This document shows, one piece after another, positions 4,458-44,093 of a DNA stretch of 44,093 nucleotides. The DNA is from an uncultured Bacteroidales bacterium (GTDB lineage Bacteria; Bacteroidota; Bacteroidia; Bacteroidales; P3), in assembly GCA_900315935.1 (NCBI GenBank), contig ONBB01000015.1, positions 1-44,093 of the forward strand, read 5' to 3'. The notes below the pieces were generated by a model. It ran no database searches. It saw only the letters and a list, made by a program, of their open reading frames with translations, and was not told the origin of the DNA. Position 1 is the stretch's first letter. Each line of letters starts with the position of its first letter. Made by a program: the position numbers and the translations under genes.

Positions 4458-4508
4458 CTCGGCAACAGCTGGACTGACTCCGCAAATACGGCGGAGAACG
4501 CTACGCCG

Positions 4509-4552: not shown

Positions 4553-4643
4553 GGTTAAAAAGCACAAAATCGGATACCCGCTGTAGTTTTTTGCCCCATT
4601 GTATCGTTTATTGTGTGTAAAACAAAATTTAAAACACACAAAA

Positions 4644-5147: not shown

Positions 5148-5157
5148 TTCCAACACC

Positions 5158-7131
5158 ATGAAGAAATCACTTGCAACATGTGCGCTGGCGCTGCTGGCAT
5201 GGGGGTGGGCACAGGCCGGCCCCGTAACGCCCGAGCGCGCCGCAACTGTGGCCAAGGCATTCTGGTCCTCCTCGCTCAACGGCAAGGGGGACCTGAATGC
5301 TGTCGGGCCGCTTGAAGGATGGCCCTACGACGGCATCCACCTCTTCACCCACACGGGCGGAGGCTTCGTGATGGTGGCCGGCGACGACGCCTCGCGCCCC
5401 ATTCTGGGCTACTCCGCCTCCGGGCGCCTCGAGCCGGGAAACCTGCCGGTGCAGCTGCGCGAATGGCTGGATGGCTACCAACAGCAACTGGACTACCTGC
5501 GCGAGCAGGGCGGAACGCCCTACCCGGCCGATGCCGAGGCATGGGCGTGCCTGGAATCCGGCAGCGGCATGAAAGATGGCGAAGGAGTTGGCCCCTTGCT
5601 GACCACCCGATGGGACCAGTCCGACCCCTACAACGACCTCTGCCCTGCCGGCACGGCAACGGGCTGCGCTGCCACGGCACAAGCCCAGCTGATGAAGTAC
5701 TGGAATCACCCGGCCTTCGGCACCGGCAGCCACAGCTACACGCATGACACCTACGGCCAGCAGGCGGCCGACTTCGCCCATACACTCTACGACTGGGACC
5801 ACATGCCCGACATGCCGAACTGGGCATCGAGCAGCCAGGAGCGGCTGGCGGTGGCCACGCTGATGTACCACTGCGGCGTTAGCCTGGAGATGCACTACGC
5901 GCCCGCCTATACTGGCGGAAGCTCGGCGCTGGGGCTGGTCGGCATGCCCGGCTACAGCAGCATCGACAACTCGCTGCAGAACTACTTCGGCTACAGCCGC
6001 CAGATGCAGGTCATCATGCGGGACGCGGGCTACACCAACGAGCAGTGGCGCGCGGCACTCATCGCCGAGCTTGACCAAAGGCATCCCATCGTCTACTGCG
6101 GTGCCGCCGAGGCCGGCGGACACGGCTTCGTATGCGACGGCTACGACAGCCGCGGCTACCTGCACTTCAACTTCGGCTGGAGCGGCCTGGGCGACGGCTA
6201 TTACACCGTGGACAGCATCAGCCCGGGCGTGGGAGGTATCGGTGGCAACGGCACCTACACCTTCAACTTGAACAACACCGCCCTCCTGGGTGCGGTGCCA
6301 GTGTATGAGATACGCGTGAGCGACACCCTCGTCAACTACGGACGCGATGGCGGCACAGACTCACTGCTGTTCGGCATCAACGAGCAGGTAGATGCCCCGT
6401 GGAGCGTTGAGAGCAGCGCCACATGGCTTACCGTGGACGAAGCCACCTTCACCCGTGCTGGATGGGTATACCTGCATGCGGAACCCATCACCGACGGAAC
6501 GCTGGAGCGCACAGCCACACTTACATTCCGCCAAGGCAGCGAGAGCGCCACGGTTCGCGTTACACAGACCGGCTACAGCAACGAAGACCTGTGCCCTGTA
6601 ACGGTAGTGATGGAATCCACCCGCGGCAACGGCTGGCAGGGCAACGCACACCTGACCCTTGAATCGGCCGGAGGCTACATATTCGGCACCGCACGGCTGA
6701 CCAACAGCCAACGCGATTCGGTGGAGATACTGGTCCCATCCAGCGAGGTGCTGTCGGTGTGGCACAGCGGTGGCGGCACCGACCGCTACATCAACTACTA
6801 CGTGCGCAACCAGCATGGCGAGAACATCGTGGAAGCCGAATACGCCTACCGCACCGGCGGAACCCACCTCATCGAGCGGCCCTGCGCATCGGTAGGCATT
6901 GACCAAGCGACACAATCCAGCAACTGGACCGTCTATCCCAACCCGGCCACCCATCAACTGCACATCGGAGCCGAGGGACTGCTGCGTGCAGAATTGCGCG
7001 ATATGACAGGTCGCATTGTGGCCACCACTACAAGCCACACGATGAATATCGAACCCCTGCCCGCAGGAGCCTACATCCTGAGCATCACCACCGCAACCGA
7101 CTACACCGCGCGGCGCATCATAAAACAATAA
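5158..7131 (+). CDS. C10 (streptopain-like) cysteine protease with BACON domain and T9SS tail
   Basis: 657 residues. Domains in order: signal peptide (1-20, ending AQA); propeptide beginning TPERAATVAKAFW; C10 papain-fold catalytic domain with ATGCAATAQAQLMKYW (nucleophile Cys170) and GGHGFVCDGY (His322) followed by FNFGWSG; a BACON-type Ig-like domain near residues 407-470 (PWSV..ATWLTV...ATLTF); and a C-terminal T9SS type-A sorting domain from about residue 590 (VYPNPATHQLHIG ... LPAGAYILSI). Both catalytic residues are present, so the protease should be active after propeptide removal, either cell-surface bound or secreted. The start at 5158 begins the signal peptide; the upstream in-frame ATG at 5134 lies inside the lipoprotein gene. 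The T9SS tail fits with porK/porP at 18.7-21.4 kb. Confidence 0.93.
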   Translation: MKKSLATCALALLAWGWAQAGPVTPERAATVAKAFWSSSLNGKGDLNAVGPLEGWPYDGIHLFTHTGGGFVMVAGDDASRPILGYSASGRLEPGNLPVQLREWLDGYQQQLDYLREQGGTPYPADAEAWACLESGSGMKDGEGVGPLLTTRWDQSDPYNDLCPAGTATGCAATAQAQLMKYWNHPAFGTGSHSYTHDTYGQQAADFAHTLYDWDHMPDMPNWASSSQERLAVATLMYHCGVSLEMHYAPAYTGGSSALGLVGMPGYSSIDNSLQNYFGYSRQMQVIMRDAGYTNEQWRAALIAELDQRHPIVYCGAAEAGGHGFVCDGYDSRGYLHFNFGWSGLGDGYYTVDSISPGVGGIGGNGTYTFNLNNTALLGAVPVYEIRVSDTLVNYGRDGGTDSLLFGINEQVDAPWSVESSATWLTVDEATFTRAGWVYLHAEPITDGTLERTATLTFRQGSESATVRVTQTGYSNEDLCPVTVVMESTRGNGWQGNAHLTLESAGGYIFGTARLTNSQRDSVEILVPSSEVLSVWHSGGGTDRYINYYVRNQHGENIVEAEYAYRTGGTHLIERPCASVGIDQATQSSNWTVYPNPATHQLHIGAEGLLRAELRDMTGRIVATTTSHTMNIEPLPAGAYILSITTATDYTARRIIKQ

Positions 7132-7150
7132 ACATTCCCCAAAAAAGAGA

Positions 7151-7177
7151 AAGGCCGTCGGCAATACCGACGGCCTT
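7151..7177. terminator. Rho-independent terminator
   Basis: Perfect 11-bp stem AAGGCCGTCGG / CCGACGGCCTT with loop CAATA, followed by T residues on the plus strand and preceded by A residues. It ends the protease transcript and can also stop the tRNA-Pro transcript coming from the right. Confidence 0.9.
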
Positions 7178-7188
7178 TTTAACAATTG

Positions 7189-7262
7189 TCGGGGTGAAAA
7201 GACTCGAACTTTCGACCCCTTGCACCCCATGCAAGTGCGCTAGCCAACTGCGCCACACCCCG
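7189..7262 (-). tRNA. tRNA-Pro, anticodon GGG
   Basis: The 74-base cloverleaf on the minus strand has acceptor CGGGGTG/CACCCCG with discriminator A, D-stem GCGC/GCGC, anticodon stem CTTGC/GCAAG with loop ATGGGGT (anticodon GGG, reading CCC/CCU), and T-arm GAAAG-TTCGAGT-CTTTT with one G-U pair. CCA is not encoded. Its promoter is at 7335-7366. Confidence 0.95.
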
Positions 7263-7334
7263 AACAATTAATTGAAAATTGAGAATTGAAATTCGCATCC
7301 CATTTTCGGAGATTTCTGCTTTTGAAATCGGGTG

Positions 7335-7366
7335 CAAAAGTACTAACATTTTAGATACTGACCAAA
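7335..7366 (-). promoter_or_regulatory. Promoter of tRNA-Pro
   Basis: On the minus strand, TTTG (7363-7366) and TACTTTTG (7335-7342) are separated by 20 bases, a perfect Bacteroidota vegetative promoter. Initiation would fall about 65 bases upstream of the tRNA. Confidence 0.8.
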
Positions 7367-7434
7367 TTTTTTTTCAAGTTTTTTGCTTTTTCAACAAACA
7401 AGCATTAAGAATCAATGCGTTGCAGAAAAATAAA

Positions 7435-7460
7435 TCGCCAGCGGCAAGTGCCACTGGCGA
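7435..7460 (-). terminator. Terminator of the lon / PorE-like operon
   Basis: TCGCCAGCGGC and GCCACTGGCGA form an 11-bp stem with one mismatch and a 4-base loop. Read on the minus strand it is followed by a T-rich run (TTTATTTTT). It lies 40 bases beyond the stop of the 7500-9002 gene. Confidence 0.8.
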
Positions 7461-7499
7461 TATAAATCGGAACAACAAGGTACTTGAAAATCGTGTTTT

Positions 7500-9002
7500 T
7501 CACTCCTCGACAATCACCATCAGTCGCGACAAACCCGAAGCATTCGAGCAACCACTGACACCGGCACATCCGTTGGCGATGGTAACCTTGACCGTAGGCG
7601 GAATGAGGGGATAGAGGTAGGTCTGCAGCGACTGGATGCGCTGGTCGGTAAGAAGGCGATTGAAGGTGCGGTCATCGGTGAGGTCGTTGGTGAGCGACAT
7701 CTGAAGCGAAGTGGAGGGATTGTCATTCAGGAAGCGGACGAGCGGAGCCAGTTTGTCCATGCCATAGTCGCTGAGCTCAATGTCGACATTGGGGCCGAAG
7801 AGGTCATCCAAATAGATGCGTTCACCCATAGGAAGACGGTCCATGCGCACATCGCGGCGCGCCTCGGCGATGAGAAGCTCGCCATCGGTCTTCTCTGTAT
7901 TGACTGTTTCGAAGGCAACGAAGTAGTTGTCAAGCTGGAATGATAGGTCGTAATATTGACCGCACTGGAGGTACATACGGTAGAAACCGTCTTGGTCGGT
8001 GAAGGTGTTGCAGACCACTTGGTCGCCTTGTCTGGCGGTAACGCGGACACCGGCAAGCGTATGCTCAAAGGGGTCGGTGACCAACCCCCAAAGGAGCACC
8101 CCGTCGAGGGCACCGACGAAGGAAAAAAGCTGCGAATCGGAAGAGCCAGCATTGCGCGAGGACACCCAATAGCCATAGCCCGAGGCAGTGTCGATGGCCA
8201 TGTCGAAATCGTTCCCAGAGGCCACATTGAAGGGCTCCGGGAGCTTTTGCACACGGCTACGGCCGATGTTGAGCATGCCCACGGTGTCGCTCTGCATACG
8301 GTCGGAGATTAGGCGGGTGGCATAGATGTTATGCTTTCCACCATCGTCCTTGTGTCCGTTGGAGGCAAAGAGGAGGCAGTCACGGTAGATAGAGGGTGTG
8401 ATTTCGTCACCGGCGGAGTTGATGCGCTTGCCGAGGTTTTCGGGCTTGGCCCAGCGCTTGCCATCGAACTGCGAGTACCAAAGGTCATAGCCACCTTGAC
8501 TGCGCGGCTTGTCGGCCGAGGAAAAAATCAAGATGTTGCCATCAGTGGTGAAGGTGGGATGATGGACGGTCATGCCCTTGCTGAAGAAGAATCCTGCACC
8601 GAGGCGTACCTGCTTGACAGAGTACTTGTCGCCCTCCTGGGTGCCGCAGTAGAGATAGGAACGGCCTTTCTTGTCGCGCAGGGTAAAATAGAGGTGCCCC
8701 GACTGGGGATGGCGGACCACATAGTCGATACCTTCGGAGAACTTGGAGAATGCAGTGTCGGCCCAGAATCCGAGGAGCTGCTGGCCGCTGCGCTGCGCCC
8801 GGAGGAGAACCTCAGAAGAGAAACAATAGAGGTTGCCGTCAACGACCGAGACATTGCTGACCCGCCCCGGAAGAACAGCCATTGACTGCTGGTTGGCCGA
8901 GAAGGCCGATTCCTGGGCTCCACAGGGGGTGAATGATGAAACCTGAAGACCCAAAATCAGGCTGACGCCTATGACGGTTAACCGATGGAGTTTATTTTTC
9001 AT
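7500..9002 (-). CDS. PorE-like protein: PD40 propeller, carboxypeptidase-regulatory-like and OmpA-like domains
   Basis: 500 residues. Signal sequence at residues 1-30, then WD40-like (PD40) propeller repeats recognisable by HPTFTTDGNILIFSSAD, GGYDLWYSQFDGKRWAKPENLGKRINSAGDE and TPSIYRDCLLFASNG. A carboxypeptidase regulatory-like beta-sandwich follows (LWGLVTDPFEHTLAGVRVTA...DQDGFYRMYL), then a C-terminal OmpA-like segment (SDYGMDKLAPLVRFLNDNP ... TDQRIQSLQTYL). This order resembles PorE of the Porphyromonas T9SS, but without the TPR region, and the OmpA part lacks the usual peptidoglycan-binding HTD motif. It overlaps the end of lon by 11 bases and is probably co-transcribed with it. A T9SS or envelope role is inferred from architecture and the nearby por genes. 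Confidence 0.7.
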   Translation of the reverse strand: MKNKLHRLTVIGVSLILGLQVSSFTPCGAQESAFSANQQSMAVLPGRVSNVSVVDGNLYCFSSEVLLRAQRSGQQLLGFWADTAFSKFSEGIDYVVRHPQSGHLYFTLRDKKGRSYLYCGTQEGDKYSVKQVRLGAGFFFSKGMTVHHPTFTTDGNILIFSSADKPRSQGGYDLWYSQFDGKRWAKPENLGKRINSAGDEITPSIYRDCLLFASNGHKDDGGKHNIYATRLISDRMQSDTVGMLNIGRSRVQKLPEPFNVASGNDFDMAIDTASGYGYWVSSRNAGSSDSQLFSFVGALDGVLLWGLVTDPFEHTLAGVRVTARQGDQVVCNTFTDQDGFYRMYLQCGQYYDLSFQLDNYFVAFETVNTEKTDGELLIAEARRDVRMDRLPMGERIYLDDLFGPNVDIELSDYGMDKLAPLVRFLNDNPSTSLQMSLTNDLTDDRTFNRLLTDQRIQSLQTYLYPLIPPTVKVTIANGCAGVSGCSNASGLSRLMVIVEE

Positions 9003-11469
9003 GCTTTCTCCTTTCTTTCTTTACGGCCACCAGCGCAAGGGGCAGCGCCTGGCTCATCTCATTGATATAGTGGAACTGAAGGCCGGCGAGGTAATTCTGC
9101 TCTATATCCTCGATGTCGCGGCGGTTTTCCTCGGAGAGTATGATGTCGGTGATGCCGGCACGCTTGGCGGCCAATATCTTCTCCTTGATGCCGCCGACAG
9201 GTGTTACATTGCCGCGCAGGGTGATTTCACCAGTCATGGCCACGGTGGGCAACACCTTGCGGTGCGAGAAAGCCGAGAGCATGGCAACGAACATGGTGAT
9301 GCCTGCCGAGGGGCCATCCTTGGGGGTGGCACCTTCGGGCACGTGGATGTGCAGGTTGCTTTCTTCGAGCTGCTTGGTATCAATGCCAAACTGGGGAGCG
9401 TTGGACTTGATGTATTCGAAGGCGAGGGTAGCCGACTCCTTCATCACATCACCGAGGTTCCCGGTCATGGAGAGGGAGCCCTTGCCCTTGCTGAGGGATG
9501 CTTCGATGAAAAGTATCTCGCCACCGACGGGGGTCCAGGCTAGACCCGTAACGACACCCTCGCGGGGCTGGCGCTGGCGGCGTTCGCTGCTGTGGATAGG
9601 TAGACCTAGCACCTGGTGCATTTCGGCGGCATCGACCGCAGCCTTGCTCTTGGTGCCGGTTTCGAGGAGAACCACTCGGTGGCGCACCAGCTTGGAGAGC
9701 TGCTTCTCGAGCTGGCGCACACCAGCCTCGCGGGTGTAGTCGTTGATGAGGGTGCGCAGCTGGTCGTCGGAGAAACGGAGGGTGCGGCCGTCCAGCACAT
9801 TGTCGCGCATGACTCGCGGCAGGATGTGGCGGCGGGCTATCTCAAGCTTCTCCTCGATGACGTAGCCGGAGAAGTCGATGACCTCCATGCGGTCGAGCAA
9901 GGCGGGCGGTATGTCGGAAAGCGAGTTGGCTGTGGCGATGAAGAAGACGTGGGAGAGGTCGTAGTCGAGGTCGACGTAGTTGTCGTGGAAGTGGCAGTTC
10001 TGCTCGGGGTCGAGCACTTCAAGCAGGGCGGAGGCGGGGTCTCCGTGGAAGGAGGCATGCTGCACTTTGTCGATTTCGTCGAGGACAAAGACCGGGTTGG
10101 AGGTCTTGGCCTTGACGATTTCCTGCATGATGCGGCCGGGCATGGCGCTGACGTAGGTACGACGGTGGCCGCGTATCTCGGCCTCGTCGTGCAGGCCGCC
10201 GAGGGCTACACGGCGGTAAGGACGGCCGAGGGCGTCGGCGATGGAGCGGCAGATGGAGGTCTTGCCGGTGCCGGGAGGGCCAACGAGGCAGAGCACCTGG
10301 GCTTTCGACTGGCGGCCGCGCTCGGCTTGGCGCTTGCGCACGGCGAGGTATTCTATGATGCGCTCCTTGACCTTCTTGATGCCGAAGTGGTCGCGGTCGA
10401 GGATGCGGCGGGCTTCGGCAATGTCGTATGTCTCGGAGGTGGCGGTGGTCCAGGGGATGTCGAGGAGGGTCTCGAGGTAGGTGAACAGCACCGTGTAGTC
10501 GGACGACTGGGGGTGGATGCGGGCCATTTTGGAGAGTTCCTTGGAGAAAGCCTGCATGACGTACTCCGGCAGCTGGAGGCTGTCGGCGCGCTTGCGCAAT
10601 TCCTCGACGTCGGGTGCAGCCTCTGGGCTGAGGGCCTGGGTGCCAAGTTCTTCCTGAATGACGCTCATCTGCTGGCGGAGATAGTACTCGCGCTGCTGGC
10701 GATCCAGCTCCTCGCGGGTCTTGGTGTCGATGGCGCGGCGCAGCTCGTCGAGGCCGCGGAGGGTGCTCAAATGCTCCAGCATGAGGTCGACACGGGCGGG
10801 ATAGTTGTCGCAGACCAGGAGGTCGTACTTCTGCTTGGCCTCGACATCGAGGTGTGTGGCGGCGAAGTTGACGAAGATTTTGTCGCTGCCGATGCCGGCG
10901 AGCATGGGAGCGATGTCCTCGTCGCCCATACGCGGGCGCATGACCTCGATGAATTGCTTGCGGAGCAGCTTCATCTTGCGCTGGAAGTCGCGCGCGTCCA
11001 TGCCGACGGTGGACTCGGGAGCCAAGGCGACGGTGCCGCGGAGGTAGGGAACCGTGGAGTTGATCCAAAGGGAGTGGCAGCGGGTGATGCCCTGAAGGAT
11101 GGCGACCGAGATGTCGTCCCTGAAGGTAAACACCTTGAGAATCTTGGCGACCACACCCACGGGGCAGAGGTCGTGCATCGAGGGTTCCTCGACGTCGTTG
11201 AGCTGGGTGAAGACAGCCACGTGCGACTGCGTGCCGCCGAGGTCGTCCAAAAGGCGGCGCGACTTGGCACGCTGTGCCGCAATGGGAATGATGACGCCGG
11301 GGAAAAGCACTTGGTCCATCACCGGCAGCACGGCCAGTTCGGACTCGATGCTGTCGTCGGTGAGCAGCACGTCCTCGTCGATTGAGTCAATCATCGGGAC
11401 TATATTGGCGCGGACGTTGATGTCCTTGGATATCATATTGGCTAGGTCGTCGAGGGTCATTTTCTTCAT
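8992..11469 (-). CDS. lon: ATP-dependent protease Lon
   Basis: 825-residue cytosolic AAA+ protease that degrades misfolded and regulatory proteins. LON substrate-binding domain from about residue 45 (LAVLPVMDQVLFPGVIIPI), coiled linker (YYLRQQMSVIQEELG), AAA+ module with Walker A GPPGTGKTS near residue 397 and Walker B FVLDEIDKV, sensor segment, and a C-terminal protease with the Ser-Lys dyad: Ser721 in DGPSAG and Lys764 in GGIKEKI, spaced 43 residues as in E. coli Lon. Complete, normal length. The leader of about 150 bases carries an 11-bp-period array (11510-11569) with the same boundary box as at dnaK. The 3' end overlaps the PorE-like gene. Confidence 0.97.
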   Translation of the reverse strand: MKKMTLDDLANMISKDINVRANIVPMIDSIDEDVLLTDDSIESELAVLPVMDQVLFPGVIIPIAAQRAKSRRLLDDLGGTQSHVAVFTQLNDVEEPSMHDLCPVGVVAKILKVFTFRDDISVAILQGITRCHSLWINSTVPYLRGTVALAPESTVGMDARDFQRKMKLLRKQFIEVMRPRMGDEDIAPMLAGIGSDKIFVNFAATHLDVEAKQKYDLLVCDNYPARVDLMLEHLSTLRGLDELRRAIDTKTREELDRQQREYYLRQQMSVIQEELGTQALSPEAAPDVEELRKRADSLQLPEYVMQAFSKELSKMARIHPQSSDYTVLFTYLETLLDIPWTTATSETYDIAEARRILDRDHFGIKKVKERIIEYLAVRKRQAERGRQSKAQVLCLVGPPGTGKTSICRSIADALGRPYRRVALGGLHDEAEIRGHRRTYVSAMPGRIMQEIVKAKTSNPVFVLDEIDKVQHASFHGDPASALLEVLDPEQNCHFHDNYVDLDYDLSHVFFIATANSLSDIPPALLDRMEVIDFSGYVIEEKLEIARRHILPRVMRDNVLDGRTLRFSDDQLRTLINDYTREAGVRQLEKQLSKLVRHRVVLLETGTKSKAAVDAAEMHQVLGLPIHSSERRQRQPREGVVTGLAWTPVGGEILFIEASLSKGKGSLSMTGNLGDVMKESATLAFEYIKSNAPQFGIDTKQLEESNLHIHVPEGATPKDGPSAGITMFVAMLSAFSHRKVLPTVAMTGEITLRGNVTPVGGIKEKILAAKRAGITDIILSEENRRDIEDIEQNYLAGLQFHYINEMSQALPLALVAVKKERRKHEK

Positions 11470-11509
11470 ATCGGTAGGCGGATGGTAGGTGTTCTGTTGG
11501 CAAATACAA

Positions 11510-11569
11510 GGGGTTCTCTAGGGCCGTTCTTCGTCTGTTCTTCGTCTGTTCTTCGTTTGTTCGTTCCTT
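11510..11569 (-). repeat. 11-bp-period array in the lon leader
   Basis: Boundary box GGGGTTCTCTAGGG (11510-11523), then GTTCTTCGTCT twice, GTTCTTCGTTT and a degenerate GTTCGTTCCTT, all exactly 11 bases. Unit sequence differs from the dnaK array but the box and the period are the same, and the orientation towards the downstream gene is the same. Confidence 0.8.
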
Positions 11570-11622
11570 TTTCTCGCGGTCGGAGTGCCTGGAGCAGAGC
11601 CAACAGGTGGGTTGGAAATTTG

Positions 11623-11630
11623 CAAAAGTA
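11623..11630 (-). promoter_or_regulatory. Probable -7 box of lon
   Basis: CAAAAGTA on the plus strand reads TACTTTTG on the minus strand, a perfect -7 box, about 155 bases upstream of lon. No TTTG lies at the expected -33 position, so it may need an activator or be weak. The array at 11510-11569 would be transcribed in the 5' leader. Confidence 0.55.
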
Positions 11631-11675
11631 CGATTTTTTCCTGAATGGGGAGTGTTAATTATTTATAAAAGATGG

Positions 11676-14156
11676 TTATTCCTGAAAATAAACACGTTTC
11701 ACACGTGGCGACACGGCAGTGAGCATCTCGTAGGGGATGGTGCCTGCGGCGGCGGCGTTGCGTTGCAGCAGGTCGCCGTGGCCAAAGATGAGCACCGGGT
11801 CGCCCTCCTGGCACGGCACACCGGTAACATCGGCGAAACACATATCCATGCAGACACTGCCGATGAGCGGCACCTCGGCACCACCCACCATCACACGCCC
11901 CTGCCCATGGCCCAGGTGGCGGTTGAGGCCGTCGGCATAGCCGATGGGGAGGATGGCGATGCGCGAAGGACGCTGGGCCTTCCAGCGGCAGTTGTAGCCC
12001 ACGCTGTCGCCCGCCGGAATGTCCTTGAGCTGCGAGATGCGCGCCACGAGGTGGCTGACGGGCAGCAATGCCTGCTGCACCCCGGGCTGCGGCGCCACGC
12101 CGTAGAGGCCGATACCGAGACGCACCATGTCCATCTGCGCCTCGGGGAAGCGCACGATGCCCGACGAGTTGAGCACGTGGCGCAGTATGCGCTGGTCATC
12201 GGCCTTGGGAATCAAACCGTCAATCCGATTTGCCCATGCGGTGAAGCTGTTGATTTGCTGACGGGTGAAGTGATCCATCTCCGCATCCTCGCTGCAGGCC
12301 AGGTGGGTGAAGATGCTGCGCACCTGCAGGGCAGGGTGCAGCTCACCGAGACGGGCTGCAAGCGCCTCGATGTCAGCCTCTCCGAAACCCAAACGGTGCA
12401 TGCCGGTATCGAACTCGAGGTGTATCGGGAACGCCTCGGTGGCGTAGATGGTCGCGTGGCGCGCAAAGAGGTCGAGTATGCGGAAAGAATAGATGTCGGG
12501 TTCCAGCCGGTAGCGCACAATGTCGTCGAAGGCGGCCTCCTCGGGGTTCATCACCATGATGGGCAGGGCAATGCCGTTGCGACGCAGCTCAACCCCCTCG
12601 TCGGCATAGGCCACGGTGAGGTAGTCCACATGGTGCTGCTGCAACACCGAAGCCACCTCGGCCTTGCCGGCCCCGTAGGACGACGCCTTGACCATGGCCA
12701 TGAGTTTGGTGGACGGCTTGATGTGCGAACGGAAATAATTGAGGTTGTGCACCATGGCGGACAGGTCAACTTCGAGAATGGTCTCATGCGAGCGGCGCTG
12801 CAGCAGCTTGGCCACCTTCTCGAACTCAAAGGCGCGTGCACCCTTGAGGAGAATGGTCTCGCTCTGGAAGAGGTTGAAATCGAAGTCGTTGATAAAGTCA
12901 GAGGTGGAGGCGTAGAACGTGGCGTTGAGCCCGGTGAAGCAGTCCTTCTGGCGGCTCAGGGCCGGCCCGATAGCCACCAGGCGGGTGATGCCTCGCTGCG
13001 CCAACAGGGCGGCCACCTGCATATAGAGCTCGTTCTCAAGCATTCCCGTCTGGAAAAAATCGCTCAAGATGAGCGTTTTGTTGAAATGCCGGCGGTCGTG
13101 CTGCAGGAAATCGAGCGCGATGGAGAGCGAGTTGAAGTCGAGCGAATAGCTGTCGTTGATGAGCATGCAGTTGCCGATGGCGTCAATAATCTCAAGGCGC
13201 ATCGTAACGGGCGTGAGTCGCGGCATGCGTTTCGAGATTTCCAACCCGCTGTAGCCAAGGTACACCATGAGTGCGAGACAGTGCATGGCGTTTTCAATAG
13301 AAGCCTGGTCGGTGAAGGGTATCTGGAAATCCTCGCAACAGCCAGCACGGAAGGTGATGTTGGTGCCGCCGCGGCCATTTTCACTGACCCGGATAATCTG
13401 CACATCGTTCTCCTCGGAGGTACCCCAGGTGAAACGCTCGATGTTGCGGAAGCCCTCGATGGAACTGATGGCGTTGTGTATCTCCTTGTGATCGGTGCAG
13501 TAGATGAGGGTCTTGCAGTGGGTAAAAAGCTGCAGCTTTTCGGCAATCTTCTGCTGCCGCGTGAGGAAATGCTCGTCGTGGGCCTGGCCCACGTTGGTGA
13601 AGATGCCGACGGTGGGGTTGATGACATGGCGCAGATGCTCCATCTCGCCCGTCTCGGAGATGCCCGCCTCGAAGACTGCCATATCGGCCTCGGGCGAGAG
13701 CTGCCACACCGAAAGCGGGACACCTATCTGCGAGTTGTAGCTCTTGGGGCTGGCCACGATGCGGTGGTCTTTCGAGAGGAGCTGCACTATCCAGTCCTTG
13801 ACCACAGTCTTGCCATTGCTGCCGGTAATGCCGATGACGGGGATGTCGAACTGGGCGCGGTGGTGGGCGGCCAAACGCTGCATCGCCCTCACCACATTGT
13901 CAACAGGCCAGTAGTTGGCATCGGCGTGCGAAGGCTCGCAGTCCTCCGGCACTACAAAGTTGCGCACTCCGGCGGCATAAAGCTCGCTGATATATCGGCA
14001 GCCGCTGTTGTTCTTGGTGGGGATGGCAAAAAAGAGCGTTCCCGCCGGCGCCGACAGCTTGCGGCTGTCGGTCAGCAGGTGGAGGATATCGGCTTCGGGC
14101 AATGCCACTTGGGGAGCCCGAGACTTGATGATGGCGGCTATTTCAGATGCTTTCAT
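11676..14156 (-). CDS. Bifunctional MurF ligase / alanine racemase
   Basis: 826 residues. N-terminal half is a MurF-type Mur ligase: LLTDSRKLSAPAGTLFFAI, P-loop GITGSNGKT (residues 109-117), FTNVGQAHDEHF and NDSYSLDFNS. The C-terminal half, from about residue 455, is an alanine racemase: EVDLSAMVHNL, PLP-lysine motif AMVKASSYGAG, then LEFDTGMHRLG and VGYNCRWKA. Alanine racemase makes D-Ala, and MurF uses D-Ala-D-Ala, so the fusion links consecutive wall steps. Such fusions are common in Bacteroidota beside a stand-alone MurF (here at 2483). The canonical EMGA motif is replaced by FEAGISETGE, so ligase activity of this half is uncertain. Start at 14156 chosen by the ATGA overlap with the upstream gene. 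Confidence 0.93.
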   Translation of the reverse strand: MKASEIAAIIKSRAPQVALPEADILHLLTDSRKLSAPAGTLFFAIPTKNNSGCRYISELYAAGVRNFVVPEDCEPSHADANYWPVDNVVRAMQRLAAHHRAQFDIPVIGITGSNGKTVVKDWIVQLLSKDHRIVASPKSYNSQIGVPLSVWQLSPEADMAVFEAGISETGEMEHLRHVINPTVGIFTNVGQAHDEHFLTRQQKIAEKLQLFTHCKTLIYCTDHKEIHNAISSIEGFRNIERFTWGTSEENDVQIIRVSENGRGGTNITFRAGCCEDFQIPFTDQASIENAMHCLALMVYLGYSGLEISKRMPRLTPVTMRLEIIDAIGNCMLINDSYSLDFNSLSIALDFLQHDRRHFNKTLILSDFFQTGMLENELYMQVAALLAQRGITRLVAIGPALSRQKDCFTGLNATFYASTSDFINDFDFNLFQSETILLKGARAFEFEKVAKLLQRRSHETILEVDLSAMVHNLNYFRSHIKPSTKLMAMVKASSYGAGKAEVASVLQQHHVDYLTVAYADEGVELRRNGIALPIMVMNPEEAAFDDIVRYRLEPDIYSFRILDLFARHATIYATEAFPIHLEFDTGMHRLGFGEADIEALAARLGELHPALQVRSIFTHLACSEDAEMDHFTRQQINSFTAWANRIDGLIPKADDQRILRHVLNSSGIVRFPEAQMDMVRLGIGLYGVAPQPGVQQALLPVSHLVARISQLKDIPAGDSVGYNCRWKAQRPSRIAILPIGYADGLNRHLGHGQGRVMVGGAEVPLIGSVCMDMCFADVTGVPCQEGDPVLIFGHGDLLQRNAAAAGTIPYEMLTAVSPRVKRVYFQE

Positions 14157-39200: not shown

Positions 39201-39663
39201 ACAGGTCGGCCTCCATGCCACGGGTGAAGCGCAGGGTGCCGGCGGTGAGGGTGCGGTTGCCCACCACCTTCTCGGCCAACGCCTCGGGCCACGTTACCAC
39301 CATCGCTGGCTCGCCACTGCCGAGGGTCTTCACCACCTCGCTGCGCATCAGCACATTGGCATTCTCGGTTTGCTCGGTATCGTAGTGGTATGCCTTGCGG
39401 TAGGAGGTGGGGAAGAGCAATGCGTTGTGCAACGCCTGCAGGTCGTTCTGCAGATAGTATGCTTCCTCCTTGGTGGGGGCTATGACGAGGTGCGATGCCG
39501 TGGGGCGGCGCAGGGCCGCGGCGGCGATGATGACAGCGGGCAGGGAGCCCGTCATGCCGTCGACGTGCAGACGAGCACCGCTGGCCTGCAGGTGATTATG
39601 AAGAGTTTCGACCAGCGCGCTGTCGCGGTAGAGGTCGGTCAAAACGGTTGCTTGCTGGCTCAT
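36271..39663 (-). CDS. mfd: Transcription-repair coupling factor Mfd
   Basis: 1130 residues. It displaces RNA polymerase stalled at lesions and recruits UvrA. UvrB-like N-terminal module (ADLWEVAERLEERGFEREDF, FAIRGGIMDVWSY), RNA-polymerase-interacting CarD-like domain (LKPGDFVTHIDYGVGRFSGL), RecG-like helicase with Walker A CGDVGFGKTEVA near residue 595 and Walker B LLIIDEEQKFGV, then ARDLSVIQTPP, GRVGRSDRKAFCYLL and a C-terminal TRCF domain. A short low-complexity insert (38486-38520, NFPYSISNFQ) precedes the conserved HGFIDHQRK. The start overlaps the MATE gene stop (ATGA), so the two are coupled. Confidence 0.97.
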   Translation of the reverse strand: MSQQATVLTDLYRDSALVETLHNHLQASGARLHVDGMTGSLPAVIIAAAALRRPTASHLVIAPTKEEAYYLQNDLQALHNALLFPTSYRKAYHYDTEQTENANVLMRSEVVKTLGSGEPAMVVTWPEALAEKVVGNRTLTAGTLRFTRGMEADLWEVAERLEERGFEREDFVVEPGQFAIRGGIMDVWSYASDLPLRLEFYDDRIDSIRTYDAATQLSVKQVDRADVLPDFVQHGLTEESRVCLADYLASTDTVWIQSLMQACEAADRVLENTQRARDERLADTSHPIAGTLPEASDISCGAQELLRSLLEKNIVEYGNSHYFTNATRIEAQSELQPMFNKQFDLLESNLRQYAELGYSLLILVSNDSQKRRLQKIFGENGESFNFPYSISNFQLSHGFIDHQRKVLCYTDHELFGRYHKYSVKNLNAAHEAMTLKELFELKPGDFVTHIDYGVGRFSGLEKVTNNGKSQELIRLIYKNNDVLYISIHGLHKISRYVGREGEAPQLNKLGSNTWQVLKQKTKRQVKDIAKDLIALYAKRKASRGFPYSADGELQQQLEASFQYEDTPDQLKATVAVKHDMEDAAPMDRLVCGDVGFGKTEVAIRAAFKACCDSKQVAVLVPSTILAYQHYNTFSDRLKGMPVRIDYLNRFRTAKEKTQIFKDVESGKIDILIGTHAITNKDLKFKDLGLLIIDEEQKFGVSVKEKLKQLKANVDCLTLTATPIPRTLQFSLMGARDLSVIQTPPPNRQPIETELSDYSEELIRDAIMYEMSRGGQTFFISNRVENLPEMAGLVQRLVPDARVAMAHGRMDGRKSLGDEGSHGTSAEETLMRFLEGDIDVLVATSIVENGLDIPNANTMIINNAHQFGLSDLHQMRGRVGRSDRKAFCYLLIPSYLTLTDDAQRRLKAIEEFSTIGSGFNIAMRDLDIRGAGNILGAEQSGFISEVGYDMYHKILNEAIEELKESDFAELFAAEAEERKEYVRECTIETDLEVLLPDEYVTSVSERLLLYKELNDLSTEEELAAYRTRLEDRFGPVPSATDELIRTITLRRMAKEFGIEKIVLKQERMVLHLVSNPQSPFYQSGNFMKVIKFAQDNQRRARLKETADRLSLSVDRVVSISQAIAIIGELAG

Positions 39664-41072
39664 ACCTCGCCGTCTTTAGGGCCTGCCTCCTTGCGGGGAC
39701 GGCGCACAGGTGCCACATATCCCGGACGGAACACCTTCAGCTGGCTCCACAGCAGGGCGGCGGCCAGCACAGCGCCCAGCACGTCGCACACCATGCAGGT
39801 AACCCAAACGCCCGTCAGGCCGTCGCCGCCAGCGTTGACCATCAGGGCGGGGATGACGAACATCAGCGGTATGAGGAACAGCACCTGCCGCGAGAGGCTG
39901 GTAGTGATGGCAATCCAGGGCTTGTCGATGCTTTGGAAGAACTGCGAGTTGGTGATGGTAAAGGCGATGAGCACCATCATCACGTTGAGGTAGCGCATGG
40001 CTGGCACACCATGGTCGAGCAGGGCGTCGCTGTCGGTGAAGGCGCGCAGGATGATGCGCGGCATGAGCAGGGCCAGCAGGGTACCCAGCAGACCAACAAC
40101 GAGCGAGACACGCATGGTGAGTGTGTAGACATGCCGCAGGCGGTGGTTGTGGCCGGCGCCGTAGTTGTAGCCTGCAATGGGCTGCATTCCCTGGCAGAGT
40201 CCAAGGATGAACATGACGAGGAACGAGAGGTAGGTGTTGACGATGCCGTAGGCACCCACGGCCAGGTCGCCGCCGTAGCGTATCAGCTGCTTGTTGAGCA
40301 GAGCCACCACGAACGAGGCGGCAAAGTTCATCAGGAAGGGGCTGAGACCGATGAGCAGTATGTTGCGGAAAATGTAAAGCTTGGGAGCCCAGATGTGACG
40401 GTGGAAGCGGATGAATGAGTTGCGGTTGAGGAAGTGCGCCACAGCCACGACGGCGGTGGTGGCCATGGAGAGGGTGGTGGCCCACGCCGCACCGGCGATG
40501 CCCCAGCCCAGCACGCTGATAAAGAGGGCATCGAGGAAGATATTGAGGATGGCGCCACCGGCCATAATCCACATGCTCTTGGTGGGGTAGCCGCTGGCGC
40601 GGATGAGGCCCGTGAGGTTGAAGGTCAGCGTGGTGAGGAACATGCCGGGCAGCACAATCTGCATGTACTGGCGGGCATAGGCGATGGTGTCCGGCGAGGC
40701 ACCGAACATCTCCAGGATGCGGTCCATGAAGAGGTAGCCGCCGGTAACGAACAGGAAACCGAAGAAAAAGGTGAGCAGCATGCTGTTGCCCAATATTTTC
40801 TCCGCCCAGCGGATGTCCTTGCGGCCGAGGACGATGCTCATTCGGCTCGAAGCGCCCACGCCCACCAGCGAGCCCAGGGCATGGATGATGTTCATGATAG
40901 GCAGCGTGATGGCGAGACCAGCGATGGCCAACGCGCCGACATACTGGCCGAGGAAGACTCGGTCCACGATATTGTAAATCGAGGCCACCACCTGCGTGAT
41001 GACCGCCGGCAGCGCATACTGCCACAACAGATGGCCTATCGGCTTGGTTTCCAGTTCTTGTATCTTGTCCAT
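39660..41072 (-). CDS. MATE family efflux transporter
   Basis: 470 residues with about 12 hydrophobic helices in two halves. N-terminal MATE signature PIGHLLWQYALPAVITQVVASIYNIVDRVFLGQ and GVGASSRMSIVLGR; second half FLMNFAASFVVALLNKQL and GICQGMQPIAGYNYGA-like LGLCQGMQPIAGYNYGAG. MATE proteins export drugs or organic cations using Na+ or H+; the substrate is unknown. The start at 41072 (MDKIQELETKPIG) gives the family N-terminus; an ATG at 41120 would add an atypical extension. First gene of a MATE-mfd operon. Confidence 0.93.
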   Translation of the reverse strand: MDKIQELETKPIGHLLWQYALPAVITQVVASIYNIVDRVFLGQYVGALAIAGLAITLPIMNIIHALGSLVGVGASSRMSIVLGRKDIRWAEKILGNSMLLTFFFGFLFVTGGYLFMDRILEMFGASPDTIAYARQYMQIVLPGMFLTTLTFNLTGLIRASGYPTKSMWIMAGGAILNIFLDALFISVLGWGIAGAAWATTLSMATTAVVAVAHFLNRNSFIRFHRHIWAPKLYIFRNILLIGLSPFLMNFAASFVVALLNKQLIRYGGDLAVGAYGIVNTYLSFLVMFILGLCQGMQPIAGYNYGAGHNHRLRHVYTLTMRVSLVVGLLGTLLALLMPRIILRAFTDSDALLDHGVPAMRYLNVMMVLIAFTITNSQFFQSIDKPWIAITTSLSRQVLFLIPLMFVIPALMVNAGGDGLTGVWVTCMVCDVLGAVLAAALLWSQLKVFRPGYVAPVRRPRKEAGPKDGEV

Positions 41073-41190
41073 AAACAGCGTTTCAGGAATGCAAATAATT
41101 ATATGATAACGCGCGCACAAGTGAAATATTGCACCTATAACAAGAATTTAGAATATCAAAAATTATATATCGCCACGGACACATCAGGAC

Positions 41191-41259: not shown

Positions 41260-41267
41260 TATTTTTG
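41260..41267 (+). promoter_or_regulatory. Probable -7 box (TATTTTTG) of the riboswitch transcript
   Basis: Perfect -7 box ending just before the predicted aptamer. TTTC instead of TTTG at about -33. Confidence 0.65.
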
Positions 41268-41275
41268 CCGCCGTT

Positions 41276-41438
41276 TTGGTCGCCCTTATGGGGTGTCAAA
41301 AGGGAAGCCGGTGCAAGTCCGGCGCAGTCCCGCTGCTGTAAGCTCGAGAGTTGAGGACCAATCTGTTACGTCACTGTGCGACGCCATAGCCGCATGGGAA
41401 GACCGGTGCCTCGCGAGCAAGCCAGAAGACCTGCCAAA
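41276..41438 (+). promoter_or_regulatory. Cobalamin (B12) riboswitch
   Basis: The conserved core reads GGGAAGCCGGTGCAAGTCC, GGCGCAGTCCCGC and CTGTAA, and ends in the B12 box AGCCAGAAGACCTGCC (41420-41435). These elements and their spacing are those of the adenosylcobalamin/hydroxocobalamin aptamer. It lies 160 bases before the secreted protein at 41601, implying repression of that gene when B12 is plentiful. The expression platform (41440-41600) was not resolved. Confidence 0.95.
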
Positions 41439-41600
41439 ACGCACATCATCGGTACCGCTTTCGAGGAAAAGTGACCCGACCGCAGTCTCTGCCCATGCTC
41501 GTTGTGTCGAGAAGACGGCCTGCGCTCTCCAGTTTTTCCCCGATTGATGTTTGCCGATACTGTGTTGGAAAACAAAGTATTAACATAAACAGTATCAAAA

Positions 41601-44093
41601 ATGGTAAAAAAACTTCTCACATTCATCCTCGGGCTGGGGCTCGCCGCAGGCGCCTCGGCCACCATCAACTTCCCGGCCTCCAGTGTCCAGTACTGGGTCG
41701 GCTCCGGCAGCAACTCGGCCGTGGTCGTCGTCGCCTGGGACGATGCCGCCACCCCCACCGCTCTGGCTTGGGGTGTCCGTTGGAACGGCACCGTTAGCGC
41801 CCTCGACCTGATCGACAGCATCCAGACCTACGACAGCCGCTTCTCCAACGGCTCCTCCGCCACCGCGGCCAGCGTTACCTACAACGACGGCACCGTCGTC
41901 CTCACTTCAGACATCAACTGGTGGTGCTATACCGTCAACGGTGCCTGGGCTACCGTGGGCTACACCGGCTACTATATGAGCGACGGCGACATCATGGAGC
42001 TCAGTGGCTCCTGCTATTTCTCCATGACCTCCGCCGTGGCCGCCACCGACCCCAACCCCGCCCCTGGTCCCGCTCCTGCGCTATGCGATTCGGTCCATGC
42101 GCTGCCTTATGCCCAGGTTTTCTCCGACTGCCCGGCCGGCCAGTCCCCTGCCAGGGCTGATGCACCCGTCCCCGAATGCTGGGCCATCTTTAGCAACGGC
42201 CGCTACACCCGCGACACCACCCCCAATGCCTACATATATTATGGCGGCATGGCCACCTCCTATTCCACCAACAACTATGGCTGCGTGACCGCCAACGACC
42301 CCTTCTTCTGCCTCATCGCCTGCCAAACCTATACGGGCACCAGCACGGGCGCCCTTAACGACATGCTTGACTTCGGCACCTGCAAGTATGCTGTCCTGCC
42401 GCCGTTCGACCAGCCCCTCTCGCAGACCCGCCTCGTTTTCGACTACCGCACCTCCAACACCGGTGCCCTCCTCCTGCTTGGCTACGTTGTCAACGACACC
42501 GCCGACTTTGTGGTCCTCGACTCGATGCCCTCGGACTACCGTGTCCTGCACCAGATGAATCTCCGTCTTGACTCGCTCGATGCCGCCATTCCCGACAATG
42601 CCCGCCTCGCCTTCTGTTGGAAGTCCACCAGCACCTCCTCTTCCTATCCTTCCAATATCTACGTCGGCATCGATAACCTCACAGTCTCCCTCATCTCTTC
42701 CGACCCTGGTAGCGGCCCTACTCCCGCTCCCGACCCCGTCGATGCCACCATCGCCTTCTCCGACATCCTCTACTGGGTGGGCTCCGGTAGCGACAGCGCC
42801 GCCCTTATAGTCAACTACGGCCAGCCCGACACCGCCTTTGCCTGGGGCTTCCTCTTCAACGGCACCACCACGGCCCAGGCGATGCTCGACTCCATCGCCG
42901 CCGCCGACCCCCGTTTCTGGTACGTCGGTTCTCCCTCGATGGGTGGCGACATCCACTTCATCCTTAACAATGGCGACACCTTGGGGCTCTCGCAAGTGGG
43001 TGCTTTGGGTTACAACTTCTGGTGGGCCAACCTCAACGGCCGTAGCGCCGGCGCCGGCATCGGTGCCACGCTGCATAACGGATACGTCTTCAAGTATGGC
43101 GACCTCAACTCGGCCATCGGCTGGGACACCCTTGGCGGCAACTGCATGGAGGAAGCCTGGATTAAGGCTCCCACCCCCGTCAACGTTCCCGACACCACCC
43201 CCATCCTCGACACCATCGTCCCGCCGCCCAGCCTTGTTGACGCCACCGTCGACTTTGCCGACATCACCTGCTGGGCAGGCTCGGGTCCCGACAGCACCGC
43301 TCTCATCGTCAGCTTCGCCAACCCTGACACCGCCTTTGCCTGGGGTGTGCTCATCAACGGCACCACCACCAGCGCCGACATGCTCGATGCCGTCATGGCG
43401 GTCGACACCAACCTCTCCATTACCGACCATCCCGACTGGGGTGACGGCCAGATTCGCTACCGCCTCGCCGACGGCACCGTCATCAGCCGCATCGGCACCC
43501 AGTGGCTCTTCAATATCAACGGTGTCGATGCCTGGGGCGACGACGATGTGATGGCCGGCGACGTCTTCAAGTTCGGCGACGCAGCCTCGGGCATCCAGGT
43601 CGGCACTTTCCAGCGCGTCTGGACCGCCGAGCCCACCATCGTGAACTTCTGCGACACCACCCCCGCCATTGACACCACCACGCCTGTAACGCCCACGCCC
43701 GTCGAGGCCACCATCGCCGCCAGCGACATCCTCTACTGGGTGGGTGAAGGCTCGAACCAGGTCGTCTTGGCCGTCAACTGGGCCGACACCGCCCTGGCCT
43801 GGGGCTACCGCTTCAGCACCGAGAGCGTAACCGTGGCCACGATGATGGCCGACATCGCCGCCGCCGACCCCCGCTTCAGTTACACCGGCAGCGGATACAT
43901 CTCCGACATCCACTACATCGACACCGCTGCCGGCATGACCGACACGCTGCGCGGCTCCAGCTACTGGGAGAGCAAGCGCAACGGCGTTACCGACGCCGGC
44001 ATGGCCCAGAGCCTGGTCGACGGCGACTTTGAGAAGTGGGGCACCCCGGCCGCCGGCGTGGTGGTGGACAGCACCTACTGGGGCGACGACTGG
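41601..44093 (+). CDS. B12-riboswitch-controlled secreted repeat protein, C-terminus beyond window
   Basis: 831 codons, open to the window end. Signal peptide MVKKLLTFILGLGLAAGASA. A domain beginning Y/C-W-V/A-G-x-G-S occurs four times, at residues 31, 391, 557 and 712, each followed by a hydrophobic strand, D-T-A-x-A-W-G-Y/V-x-F/I, then D-I/V-AAADPRF-like and, where complete, a G-x-V-F-K-Y/F-G-D end motif. Between copies 1 and 2 (residues about 165-367) lies a jellyroll resembling choice-of-anchor J/cleaved-adhesin domains (LPYAQVFSDC ... WAIFSNG ... VGIDNLTV). Linkers are Pro/Thr/Asp-rich. The repeat domain is not one I can name. Riboswitch control suggests a role in capturing cobalamin or corrinoids at the cell surface; a T9SS or anchor signal may follow outside the window. 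Confidence 0.85.
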   Translation, partial: MVKKLLTFILGLGLAAGASATINFPASSVQYWVGSGSNSAVVVVAWDDAATPTALAWGVRWNGTVSALDLIDSIQTYDSRFSNGSSATAASVTYNDGTVVLTSDINWWCYTVNGAWATVGYTGYYMSDGDIMELSGSCYFSMTSAVAATDPNPAPGPAPALCDSVHALPYAQVFSDCPAGQSPARADAPVPECWAIFSNGRYTRDTTPNAYIYYGGMATSYSTNNYGCVTANDPFFCLIACQTYTGTSTGALNDMLDFGTCKYAVLPPFDQPLSQTRLVFDYRTSNTGALLLLGYVVNDTADFVVLDSMPSDYRVLHQMNLRLDSLDAAIPDNARLAFCWKSTSTSSSYPSNIYVGIDNLTVSLISSDPGSGPTPAPDPVDATIAFSDILYWVGSGSDSAALIVNYGQPDTAFAWGFLFNGTTTAQAMLDSIAAADPRFWYVGSPSMGGDIHFILNNGDTLGLSQVGALGYNFWWANLNGRSAGAGIGATLHNGYVFKYGDLNSAIGWDTLGGNCMEEAWIKAPTPVNVPDTTPILDTIVPPPSLVDATVDFADITCWAGSGPDSTALIVSFANPDTAFAWGVLINGTTTSADMLDAVMAVDTNLSITDHPDWGDGQIRYRLADGTVISRIGTQWLFNINGVDAWGDDDVMAGDVFKFGDAASGIQVGTFQRVWTAEPTIVNFCDTTPAIDTTTPVTPTPVEATIAASDILYWVGEGSNQVVLAVNWADTALAWGYRFSTESVTVATMMADIAAADPRFSYTGSGYISDIHYIDTAAGMTDTLRGSSYWESKRNGVTDAGMAQSLVDGDFEKWGTPAAGVVVDSTYWGDDW

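What the first reader, a model, noticed from the sequence alone, without database searches (positions are those of the whole stretch)
41276..44093. B12-riboswitch-controlled secreted protein with four copies of an unrecognised domain
The protein has four YWVGxGS...DTAxAWG domains of about 150 residues and a jellyroll between the first two, preceded by a clear cobalamin riboswitch. Known riboswitch-controlled surface B12 proteins in gut Bacteroidota (BtuB, BtuG, BtuH) do not match. A multi-domain surface corrinoid collector, or a tether for one, would be a new class. The conserved Trp/Gly/Asp positions may form a ligand site present four times.
Basis: partly seen in the sequence, partly recalled or inferred. 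Interest (0 to 1): 0.78.

Follow-up and report, generated by a model that had tools for sequence, protein, structure and literature searches.

The report
Vitamin B12-controlled transcobalamin-like surface protein
An uncultured gut-type bacterium carries, behind a vitamin B12 switch, a gene for a large exported protein with four domains related to the B12-gripping half of the animal carrier transcobalamin, so it is probably a new kind of bacterial B12 collector.

Summary
Observation confirmed and extended. A complete cobalamin riboswitch (41260-41452, 109.8 bits) precedes a secreted ORF (41601) that runs off the contig end. Another contig of the genome overlaps that end by 85 exact bases and carries the frame to 1169 aa: signal peptide, domain 1, a jellyroll-like stretch, domains 2-4, a 225-aa C-terminal domain, a T9SS sorting tail. 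The "unrecognised" domain is a divergent transcobalamin-type domain (Pfam DUF4430): some relatives pass the Pfam cut-off (up to 79.7 bits), the window protein does not. The B12 link is strong: of 59 related ORFs examined, 52 lie behind a same-strand cobalamin riboswitch, 4 have their upstream cut by a contig end, 3 lack one; of 146 other T9SS tails, 1 does. In other genera and families the domain protein sits in riboswitch-btuB-btuG-btuH operons, and the domain is fused to DUF5074 (BtuG's family) propellers or DUF4465 (BtuJ-type) domains. The human transcobalamin beta domain alone binds cobalamin (published). Most likely a B12-repressed, T9SS-exported, perhaps multivalent corrinoid scavenger. 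New variant of a known kind.

The parts
41260..41452 (+). cobalamin riboswitch aptamer, complete
   Evidence: RF00174, 109.8 bits, model 1-189, E 9.1e-27
41601..44093 (+). secreted multi-domain protein, first 831 aa; continues in contig C10 (L007:2-1099) to 1169 aa in all, with a C-terminal domain (L007:182-856) and a T9SS tail
   Evidence: ORF open at contig end; 85-base exact overlap with C10; joined length computed; tail
41601..41660 (+). signal peptide, approximate (by eye from the translation; no signal-peptide program run)
   Evidence: hydrophobic N-terminus ending ASA
41652..42068 (+). transcobalamin-beta-like domain, copy 1
   Evidence: profile match; weak own DUF4430 match at aa 106-130, E 0.074, below cut-off
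42078..42705 (+). jellyroll-like stretch between copies 1 and 2, approximate limits, no family match
   Evidence: position; no Pfam or NCBIfam match
42738..43178 (+). transcobalamin-beta-like domain, copy 2
   Evidence: profile match
43236..43640 (+). transcobalamin-beta-like domain, copy 3
   Evidence: profile match; E 4e-21 with a profile that does not contain it
43701..44093 (+). transcobalamin-beta-like domain, copy 4 (cut by the contig end; completed in C10)
   Evidence: profile match; E 4e-39 with a profile that does not contain it

Best explanation
The gene encodes a cell-surface corrinoid (vitamin B12) scavenger. When B12 is low the cobalamin riboswitch lets it be expressed (shown: the aptamer; inferred: direction of control). 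The protein crosses the inner membrane by its signal peptide and the outer membrane by the type IX secretion system, guided by its C-terminal sorting tail (tail shown; export inferred). Outside the cell four transcobalamin-beta-like (DUF4430) domains and a C-terminal domain with a BtuH-like core each offer a possible corrinoid site, so one polypeptide could capture several corrinoids and pass them to the BtuB transporter encoded elsewhere in the same genome (inferred).
For: Complete riboswitch. T9SS sorting tail, 37.5 bits over a cut-off of 27. Domain family linked to riboswitches: 52 of 59 ORFs (breakdown in the full report), against 1 of 146 other T9SS tails. DUF4430 over its 23.8-bit cut-off in relatives: 79.7 and 44.8 bits, 27.0 bits over profile positions 2-68 of 72. 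Operons riboswitch, BtuB, BtuG, BtuH, domain protein in other families. Fusion of the domain to DUF5074-type propellers in L105, L107-L111 and L052, and to DUF4465 in L053-L056. The C-terminal domain is itself riboswitch-linked, 42 of 47 places, is fused to DUF4465 without the repeat domain in L114 and L115, and matches BtuH in profile comparison (probability 79%, E 1.5e-5, 38 columns). A BtuB gene, matching BtuB1 at 2e-103, lies behind another riboswitch of the same genome. Published: isolated human TC-beta binds cyanocobalamin (PMC5599065, Results read); teleost Tcn-like proteins consist of a DUF4430 domain like the C-terminus of TCN proteins (PMC4350170, one passage); bacterial transcobalamin-like SLBB domains were predicted to bind B12 (PMC1796856, abstract and passages).
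Against: No binding data and no structure. The window protein's DUF4430 match is 13.9 bits, below the cut-off; of 73 single copies 16 match at E <= 0.01, and 7 of the 80 non-redundant copies had been left out of that set. Profiles of the domain find no transcobalamin or intrinsic factor in the PDB. Neither the C-terminal domain nor its profile hits BtuH2 (7biz); of six published BtuH2 contact residues only one lies in the aligned stretch. In the distant loci the repeat-domain profile A2 mostly covers only the first 60-110 residues, so there the DUF4430 half is not shown. Three relatives with visible upstream sequence have no cobalamin riboswitch. A DUF4430 protein of the phylum lies outside any B12 locus seen (L091/L113: no cobalamin riboswitch). 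The propeller fused in L107 has 9s6c, not BtuG, as its only solved relative at E <= 0.001. BtuL and BtuK2 are B12-operon proteins of B. thetaiotaomicron for which no cobalamin binding was seen (PMC12751083, part of Results).
Confidence: 0.7

Rival explanations
1. Only the C-terminal (BtuH-core) domain binds corrinoid; the four repeats are spacers that hold it away from the cell, or contacts for BtuB/BtuG, as the PKD-type Ig domains of BtuH2 may be.
For: Repeat number varies from 1 to 5 between relatives. The C-terminal domain looks better conserved: mean column identity 58% in its 20-row alignment against 39% in the 73-row repeat alignment, though the two samples are not matched. It occurs without the repeat domain behind riboswitches (L114, L115). 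In BtuH2 cobalamin sits on the C-terminal domain, not on the Ig-like ones (PMC8941943, passages).
Against: The repeat domain also occurs behind riboswitches in ORFs without the C-terminal domain (L106, L051, L118) and is related to a domain that binds B12 alone in animals (PMC5599065).
Confidence: 0.2
2. The protein is a surface adhesin or matrix protein switched on as part of a B12-starvation response (for example to hold on to B12-making neighbours or to vesicles) and does not itself bind corrinoid.
For: Many T9SS cargo proteins are adhesins (recalled). BtuL is a B12-regulated surface protein that did not bind cobalamin and acts on vesicle release (PMC12751083, passages). The jellyroll-like stretch is of an adhesin kind by eye only.
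Against: Gene fusion to DUF5074 and DUF4465 domains and place inside btuB-btuG-btuH operons of relatives point to ligand handling.
Confidence: 0.12
3. The protein captures a host or dietary B12-carrier complex (haptocorrin or intrinsic factor) rather than free corrinoid, its transcobalamin-like domains replacing the carrier's beta half.
For: BtuG2 takes cobalamin from human intrinsic factor (PMC6143338, passages). In transcobalamin the alpha and beta halves assemble only around cobalamin (PMC5599065, Results).
Confidence: 0.05

Closest known systems
Transcobalamin / intrinsic factor beta domain; transcobalamin-like SLBB clade; Pfam PF14478 DUF4430
   Same: some relatives match DUF4430 above its cut-off; order strand-strand-helix-strand-hairpin with W..NG and GD motifs (by eye); B12 context
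   Different: no alpha/alpha toroid seen; 1 to 5 copies per protein; own N-terminal YWVGxG..AWG signature; T9SS tail; the DUF4430 model itself finds 1 of 395 sampled genomes of the phylum
BtuH (BtuH2, PDB 7biz)
   Same: riboswitch loci with btuB; C-terminal domain shares a 38-column core stretch, 42% identity
   Different: not hit by phmmer or hmmsearch; five of six B12 contact residues lie outside the aligned stretch; T9SS tail instead of a lipoprotein signal; true BtuH is a separate gene in several of the operons
BtuG (DUF5074 surface propeller)
   Same: riboswitch operon partner (L108); DUF5074 propeller fused to the domain in L107 and its likes
   Different: no propeller match in the window protein or its continuation
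BtuJ / DUF4465
   Same: neighbour or fusion partner in relatives (L052, L053-L056, L114, L115)
   Different: no DUF4465 match in the window protein or its continuation

Membership tests
DUF4430 / transcobalamin-like SLBB domain | PF14478 match above gathering score | tested here: inconclusive
   window protein below cut-off (13.9 of 23.8 bits); relatives above it: 79.7, 44.8 and 27.0 bits; 16 of 73 single copies at E <= 0.01. The window copies are tied to these relatives by profile
DUF4430 / transcobalamin-like SLBB domain | beta-grasp fold with a hairpin insert after the helix | not testable with these tools
   structure prediction switched off; PDB profile searches gave no transcobalamin
DUF4430 / transcobalamin-like SLBB domain | binds cobalamin | not testable with these tools
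   needs a bench assay
BtuH | sequence match to the BtuH2 B12-binding domain | tested here: inconclusive
   hhalign 79%, E 1.5e-5, 38 columns; no phmmer or hmmsearch match; so not filed as BtuH
BtuH | contact residues Tyr510, Trp511, Trp577, His476, Asn399, Gln333 (PMC8941943, passage) | tested here: inconclusive
   only Asn399 lies in the aligned stretch, and it is kept (ENSF against GNAF; numbering worked out); the other five lie outside the aligned 38 columns and could not be compared
BtuG (DUF5074) | DUF5074 / YncE-type propeller in the protein | tested here: not met
   no match in the window protein or its continuation
DUF4465 / BtuJ | PF14717 match | tested here: not met
   no match in the window protein or its continuation
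Cobalamin-riboswitch regulon | complete RF00174 aptamer in the 5' leader, same strand | tested here: met
   148 bases between aptamer and ATG
Cobalamin-riboswitch regulon | expression platform that links aptamer to expression | tested here: inconclusive
   no intrinsic terminator on the + strand between aptamer and ATG; fold of the leader not unusual, z -1.08
Type IX secretion cargo | C-terminal sorting domain (PF18962 / TIGR04183) | tested here: met
   37.5 bits over 27 and 39.6 over 23, on the C10 continuation

The most novel reading that the evidence does not exclude
Each of the four repeats is a working corrinoid site: a multivalent, T9SS-displayed B12 sponge made from the same beta-grasp module that animals use in transcobalamin and intrinsic factor, so that gut bacteria and their hosts compete for B12 with related binding domains, and the C-terminal domain is a further B12-binding fold.
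Probability: 0.4. Interest if true: 0.85.

Novelty: new variant of a known kind. Interest (0 to 1): 0.68.

Why it matters
The surface B12 proteins described for gut Bacteroides in the papers I saw (BtuG, BtuH, BtuJ, BtuK) are lipoproteins. This family would add a T9SS-exported, tandem-domain collector that is widespread in one Bacteroidales family (131 of 190 genomes) and reaches other families of the class. It would bring the transcobalamin-type domain into the phylum's B12 loci and give a concrete test of the 2007 prediction (PMC1796856) that bacterial transcobalamin-like domains bind B12.

Tried and rejected
Structure prediction: switched off, so there was no model for a fold search and none was tried. 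PDB profile searches with the repeat domain: chance-like hits only (fascin, E 0.8; beta-lactamase inhibitory protein II, E 8e-5 summed from weak stretches none of which passes alone). PDB searches with the C-terminal domain and its profile: nothing. A DUF4430 protein of the phylum against the PDB: nothing useful. Profile comparison of the repeat domain with BtuH and with the C-terminal domain: nothing. NF033170 (LIC_13355 lipoprotein) on the C-terminal domain: 19.9 bits against a cut-off of 120, not used as a name. PF12792 CSS-motif, 14.6 bits under a cut-off of 23: rejected. Terminator scan of the leader: one candidate upstream of the aptamer and one on the other strand. Considered and rejected: that the protein is BtuG, BtuJ or BtuH (see membership tests); that the riboswitch belongs to the divergent gene 39660-41120 (MATE-like by eye), which lies on the other strand.

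Selection in the counts. The script used one row per ORF: all 24 ORFs listed for 23 other-genus genomes, and 31 ORFs from the cut list for 28 same-genus genomes. On checking I found one listed ORF that I had overlooked (G082:C15) and three more repeat-domain ORFs of those genomes that came up (G118:C2, G022:C137, G121:C8); all four are now counted. The tables were cut, so unlisted ORFs are not in the counts. In most genomes and some only part of the riboswitch candidates were scored, so riboswitch counts are lower bounds. For the C-terminal domain I took 47 listed rows in the genomes with a riboswitch search and left out rows that match only the sorting tail. The T9SS control used the 150 listed of 464 tails in 8 genomes and allowed a wider distance (ORF length plus 10 kb). 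The 73-row alignment is 73 of 80 non-redundant copies, of 124 near-full-length, of 151 found; seven cut or divergent ones were left out.
Full report
WHAT IS THERE. The window is a whole contig (C27, 44093 bases) of a 2.29-Mb, 31-contig genome. Near its right end a complete cobalamin riboswitch (41260-41452, + strand, 109.8 bits) precedes an ORF that starts at 41601 and is open at the contig end. A search with that ORF found a second place in the same genome, the start of contig C10; the last 85 bases of the window equal the first 85 of C10 exactly. The frame continues for 366 aa in C10; the joined length is 1169 aa with a 28-aa overlap. The order last repeat, C-terminal domain, sorting tail is also found on single contigs of relatives (L041; L058; L116), so the junction is believable though not proven by reads.

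ANATOMY. N-terminal hydrophobic segment (signal peptide by eye). Four copies of a 130-150 aa domain. A jellyroll-like stretch between copies 1 and 2 without family match. A 225-aa C-terminal domain without Pfam match (called CT here; motif DFAVFEN). A T9SS sorting domain: 37.5 bits in Pfam, cut-off 27; 39.6 bits in NCBIfam, cut-off 23. After the gene the next ORFs on C10 look unrelated to B12 (by eye), so here the gene seems to stand alone behind its riboswitch.

THE REPEAT DOMAIN. A 73-row alignment shows invariant W13, G15, W36, G37, D57 and near-invariant G17, A35, I53, R59, W95, N100, G101, G115. The window protein itself gives only a sub-threshold DUF4430 match (13.9 bits). Relatives carry the argument: L042 gives 79.7 bits with four stretches and L041 44.8 bits with three, cut-off 23.8; L116 gives 27.0 bits over profile positions 2-68 of 72; of 73 single copies 16 match at E <= 0.01, best 6.8e-8. 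Against this, L058, L059, L106, L107, L112 and L047 have repeat domains but no DUF4430 match. A published passage describes teleost Tcn-like proteins as a DUF4430 domain like the C-terminus of TCN proteins (PMC4350170). Burroughs et al. 2007 placed the transcobalamin C-terminal domain in a transcobalamin-like clade of the SLBB beta-grasp superfamily, predicted B12 binding for bacterial members, and named low-GC Gram-positives, planctomycetes and some euryarchaea as hosts (PMC1796856, abstract and passages). The Pfam model finds 1 of 395 sampled genomes of this phylum, so this branch is largely unlabelled. The mapping of strand, strand, helix, insert, strand, W..NG strand and GD strand on to that fold is mine, by eye.

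HOW WIDESPREAD. The four-copy profile hits 131 of 190 genomes of the window's taxonomic family, in 8 of 12 genera. A broader 23-row profile hits 8 of 395 genomes of the phylum, the window's own included; the other seven belong to the same order (1) or class (6). Two named relatives are uncultured Bacteroidales, one from roe deer reticulum; both have the riboswitch.

B12 LINK OF THE REPEAT DOMAIN. Riboswitches were sought in 28 same-genus and 23 other-genus genomes. Of 55 domain ORFs first taken, 50 have a same-strand cobalamin riboswitch within 10 kb upstream on the contig. The five others: G012:C72 and G041:C8 run to the contig end, G003:C144 begins about 0.15 kb from it, G125:C50 lies on a 3.6-kb contig while sister genomes of its genus have the riboswitch further upstream than that; G182:C188 has 8 kb of visible upstream sequence and no riboswitch. 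Four ORFs added on checking: G118:C2 and G022:C137 have it, G082:C15 and G121:C8 do not. Total 59: 52 with, 4 cut off, 3 without. By position alone about 0.6% would be expected (27 riboswitches in 8 genomes). As a control for T9SS cargo in general, of 150 listed tails (of 464 found in 8 genomes) 5 lie downstream of a riboswitch, by a wider distance rule; 4 of the 5 belong to this family (one as a piece in another frame, G184:C31, judged by position) and 1 is another protein, so 1 of 146.

OPERONS AND FUSIONS. In genomes of other families the locus reads riboswitch, BtuB, BtuG, BtuH, domain protein in L105, L108, L109, L111 and L112. L107 has riboswitch, BtuH, domain protein; L106 riboswitch, domain protein; L110 is cut by its contig end and shows BtuH, domain protein and no riboswitch; so 7 of these 8 loci have the riboswitch. 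What was tested: the L108 BtuH matches 7biz (BtuH2) at 2e-44 and 8blw_B (the BtuG1 entry) at 1.5e-69; the L108 BtuG matches 8blw_B at 9e-42 and DUF5074; the L108 BtuB has TonB-receptor domains; BtuH in the other loci by similarity to that of L108. BtuB and BtuG in the other loci were named by position and look. Within the window's family, L041 and L046 show riboswitch, TonB receptor, propeller-like lipoprotein, domain protein; the L041 receptor matches TonB-B12 at 2.7e-21 but below its cut-off, and its propeller gene was not confirmed as BtuG. L047-L050 have BtuH, a DUF5074 protein and the domain protein (riboswitches), and L052 has BtuH, domain protein and DUF4465. Fusions: the domain with a DUF5074-type propeller in L105, L107, L108, L109, L110, L111 and L052; the domain with CT and DUF4465 in L053, L054, L055, L056; CT with DUF4465 in L114 and L115. 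The propeller in L107 is DUF5074 at 2e-120, but its only solved relative at E <= 0.001 is 9s6c, not BtuG, so 'BtuG-type' there means the Pfam family. The DUF4465 of L114 matches 9fct (BtuJ1) at 7e-8 and 4jqr at 7e-11. Eight distant DUF4465 proteins are reported to bind B12 (PMC13398666, abstract and part of Results).

THE CT DOMAIN. In a 20-row alignment the other rows are 34-79% identical to the window's copy, 57-79% in 12 of 19. It lies behind a riboswitch in 42 of 47 places; of the five others G012:C72, G041:C8, G046:C188 and G125:C50 are cut by contig ends and G121:C8 is a true miss. Compared with an 11-row BtuH alignment it gives probability 79%, E 1.5e-5, over 38 columns at 42% identity, but neither the sequence nor the profile finds 7biz. 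Of the six BtuH2 contact residues (PMC8941943, passages) only Asn399 lies in that stretch, and it is kept (numbering: 7biz chain position plus 100, worked out by me). I therefore call it BtuH-like in its core, not a BtuH.

MECHANISM. Shown: riboswitch, sorting tail, domain relationship through relatives, genomic linkage, fusions. Published for relatives: isolated human TC-beta binds cyanocobalamin and cobinamide in crystals and pairs with the alpha half only when cobalamin is present (PMC5599065, Results read); cobalamin binds the beta half first, and some organisms are said to have only the beta half (PMC11107200, passages). Inferred: low B12 raises expression; T9SS displays or releases the protein; repeats and CT bind corrinoid; corrinoid passes to BtuB. 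The same genome has a riboswitch-led BtuB (2e-103 to BtuB1) with a propeller-like lipoprotein next to it (named by look). Whether the riboswitch works by termination or translation is open: no terminator was found on the + strand between aptamer and ATG.

NOVELTY. Searches for DUF4430, transcobalamin-like domains, T9SS with cobalamin, BtuG/BtuH with transcobalamin, and SLBB (the listings hold at most 20 titles each) showed no paper that describes this family; the library holds open-licence papers only. PMC12751083 and PMC13398666 do not mention transcobalamin or T9SS in their main text. A cobalamin riboswitch before an unknown TonB receptor in a Flavobacterium is in print (PMC9723704, one passage). 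I rate it a new variant of a known kind: surface B12 scavenging is known, and the fold is known to bind B12; the lineage, tandem architecture and T9SS tail are new as far as these searches go.

Noticed in passing
L009 (G000:C18) 7709-9814 (-), riboswitch G000:C18:23916-24108 (-): Another cobalamin riboswitch of the genome stands before an anaerobic ribonucleotide reductase (NRDD), an expected B12-independent stand-in.
   Followed up: partly
L010 (G000:C8) 5724-7028 (+), riboswitch G000:C8:159382-159578 (+): Another cobalamin riboswitch precedes a 434-aa ORF that looks like a CoA-transferase or acetyl-CoA hydrolase (named by eye); an unusual riboswitch target.
   Followed up: no
L052 (G131:C84) 6666-12038 (+): A 1791-aa protein holds one repeat domain and two DUF5074-type propeller matches in a riboswitch locus with BtuH and DUF4465.
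   Followed up: partly
L043 (G182:C188) 8263-10551 (+): A relative with one repeat domain, no riboswitch and what looks like a C-terminal membrane segment: the domain is not confined to B12-controlled T9SS proteins.
   Followed up: no
L120 (G082:C15) 5508-5567 (-) beside ORF 5973-13460 (+): A SAM-II riboswitch lies on the other strand just upstream of a 2496-aa repeat-domain ORF that lacks a cobalamin riboswitch.
   Followed up: no
L060 (G018:C77) 1882-2074 and 8402-8594: Two cobalamin riboswitches on one stretch, each leading its own repeat-domain protein.
   Followed up: no
L045 (G184:C31) 1926-3326 and 3286-3501: The repeat-domain ORF and its T9SS tail lie in different frames, a frameshift in the gene or in the assembly.
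   Followed up: no
L007 (G000:C10) 2620-5673 and 5701-7824 (+): A 1017-aa protein with a T9SS-tail-like end and an OmpA-like outer membrane protein follow the gene on C10 (by eye).
   Followed up: no
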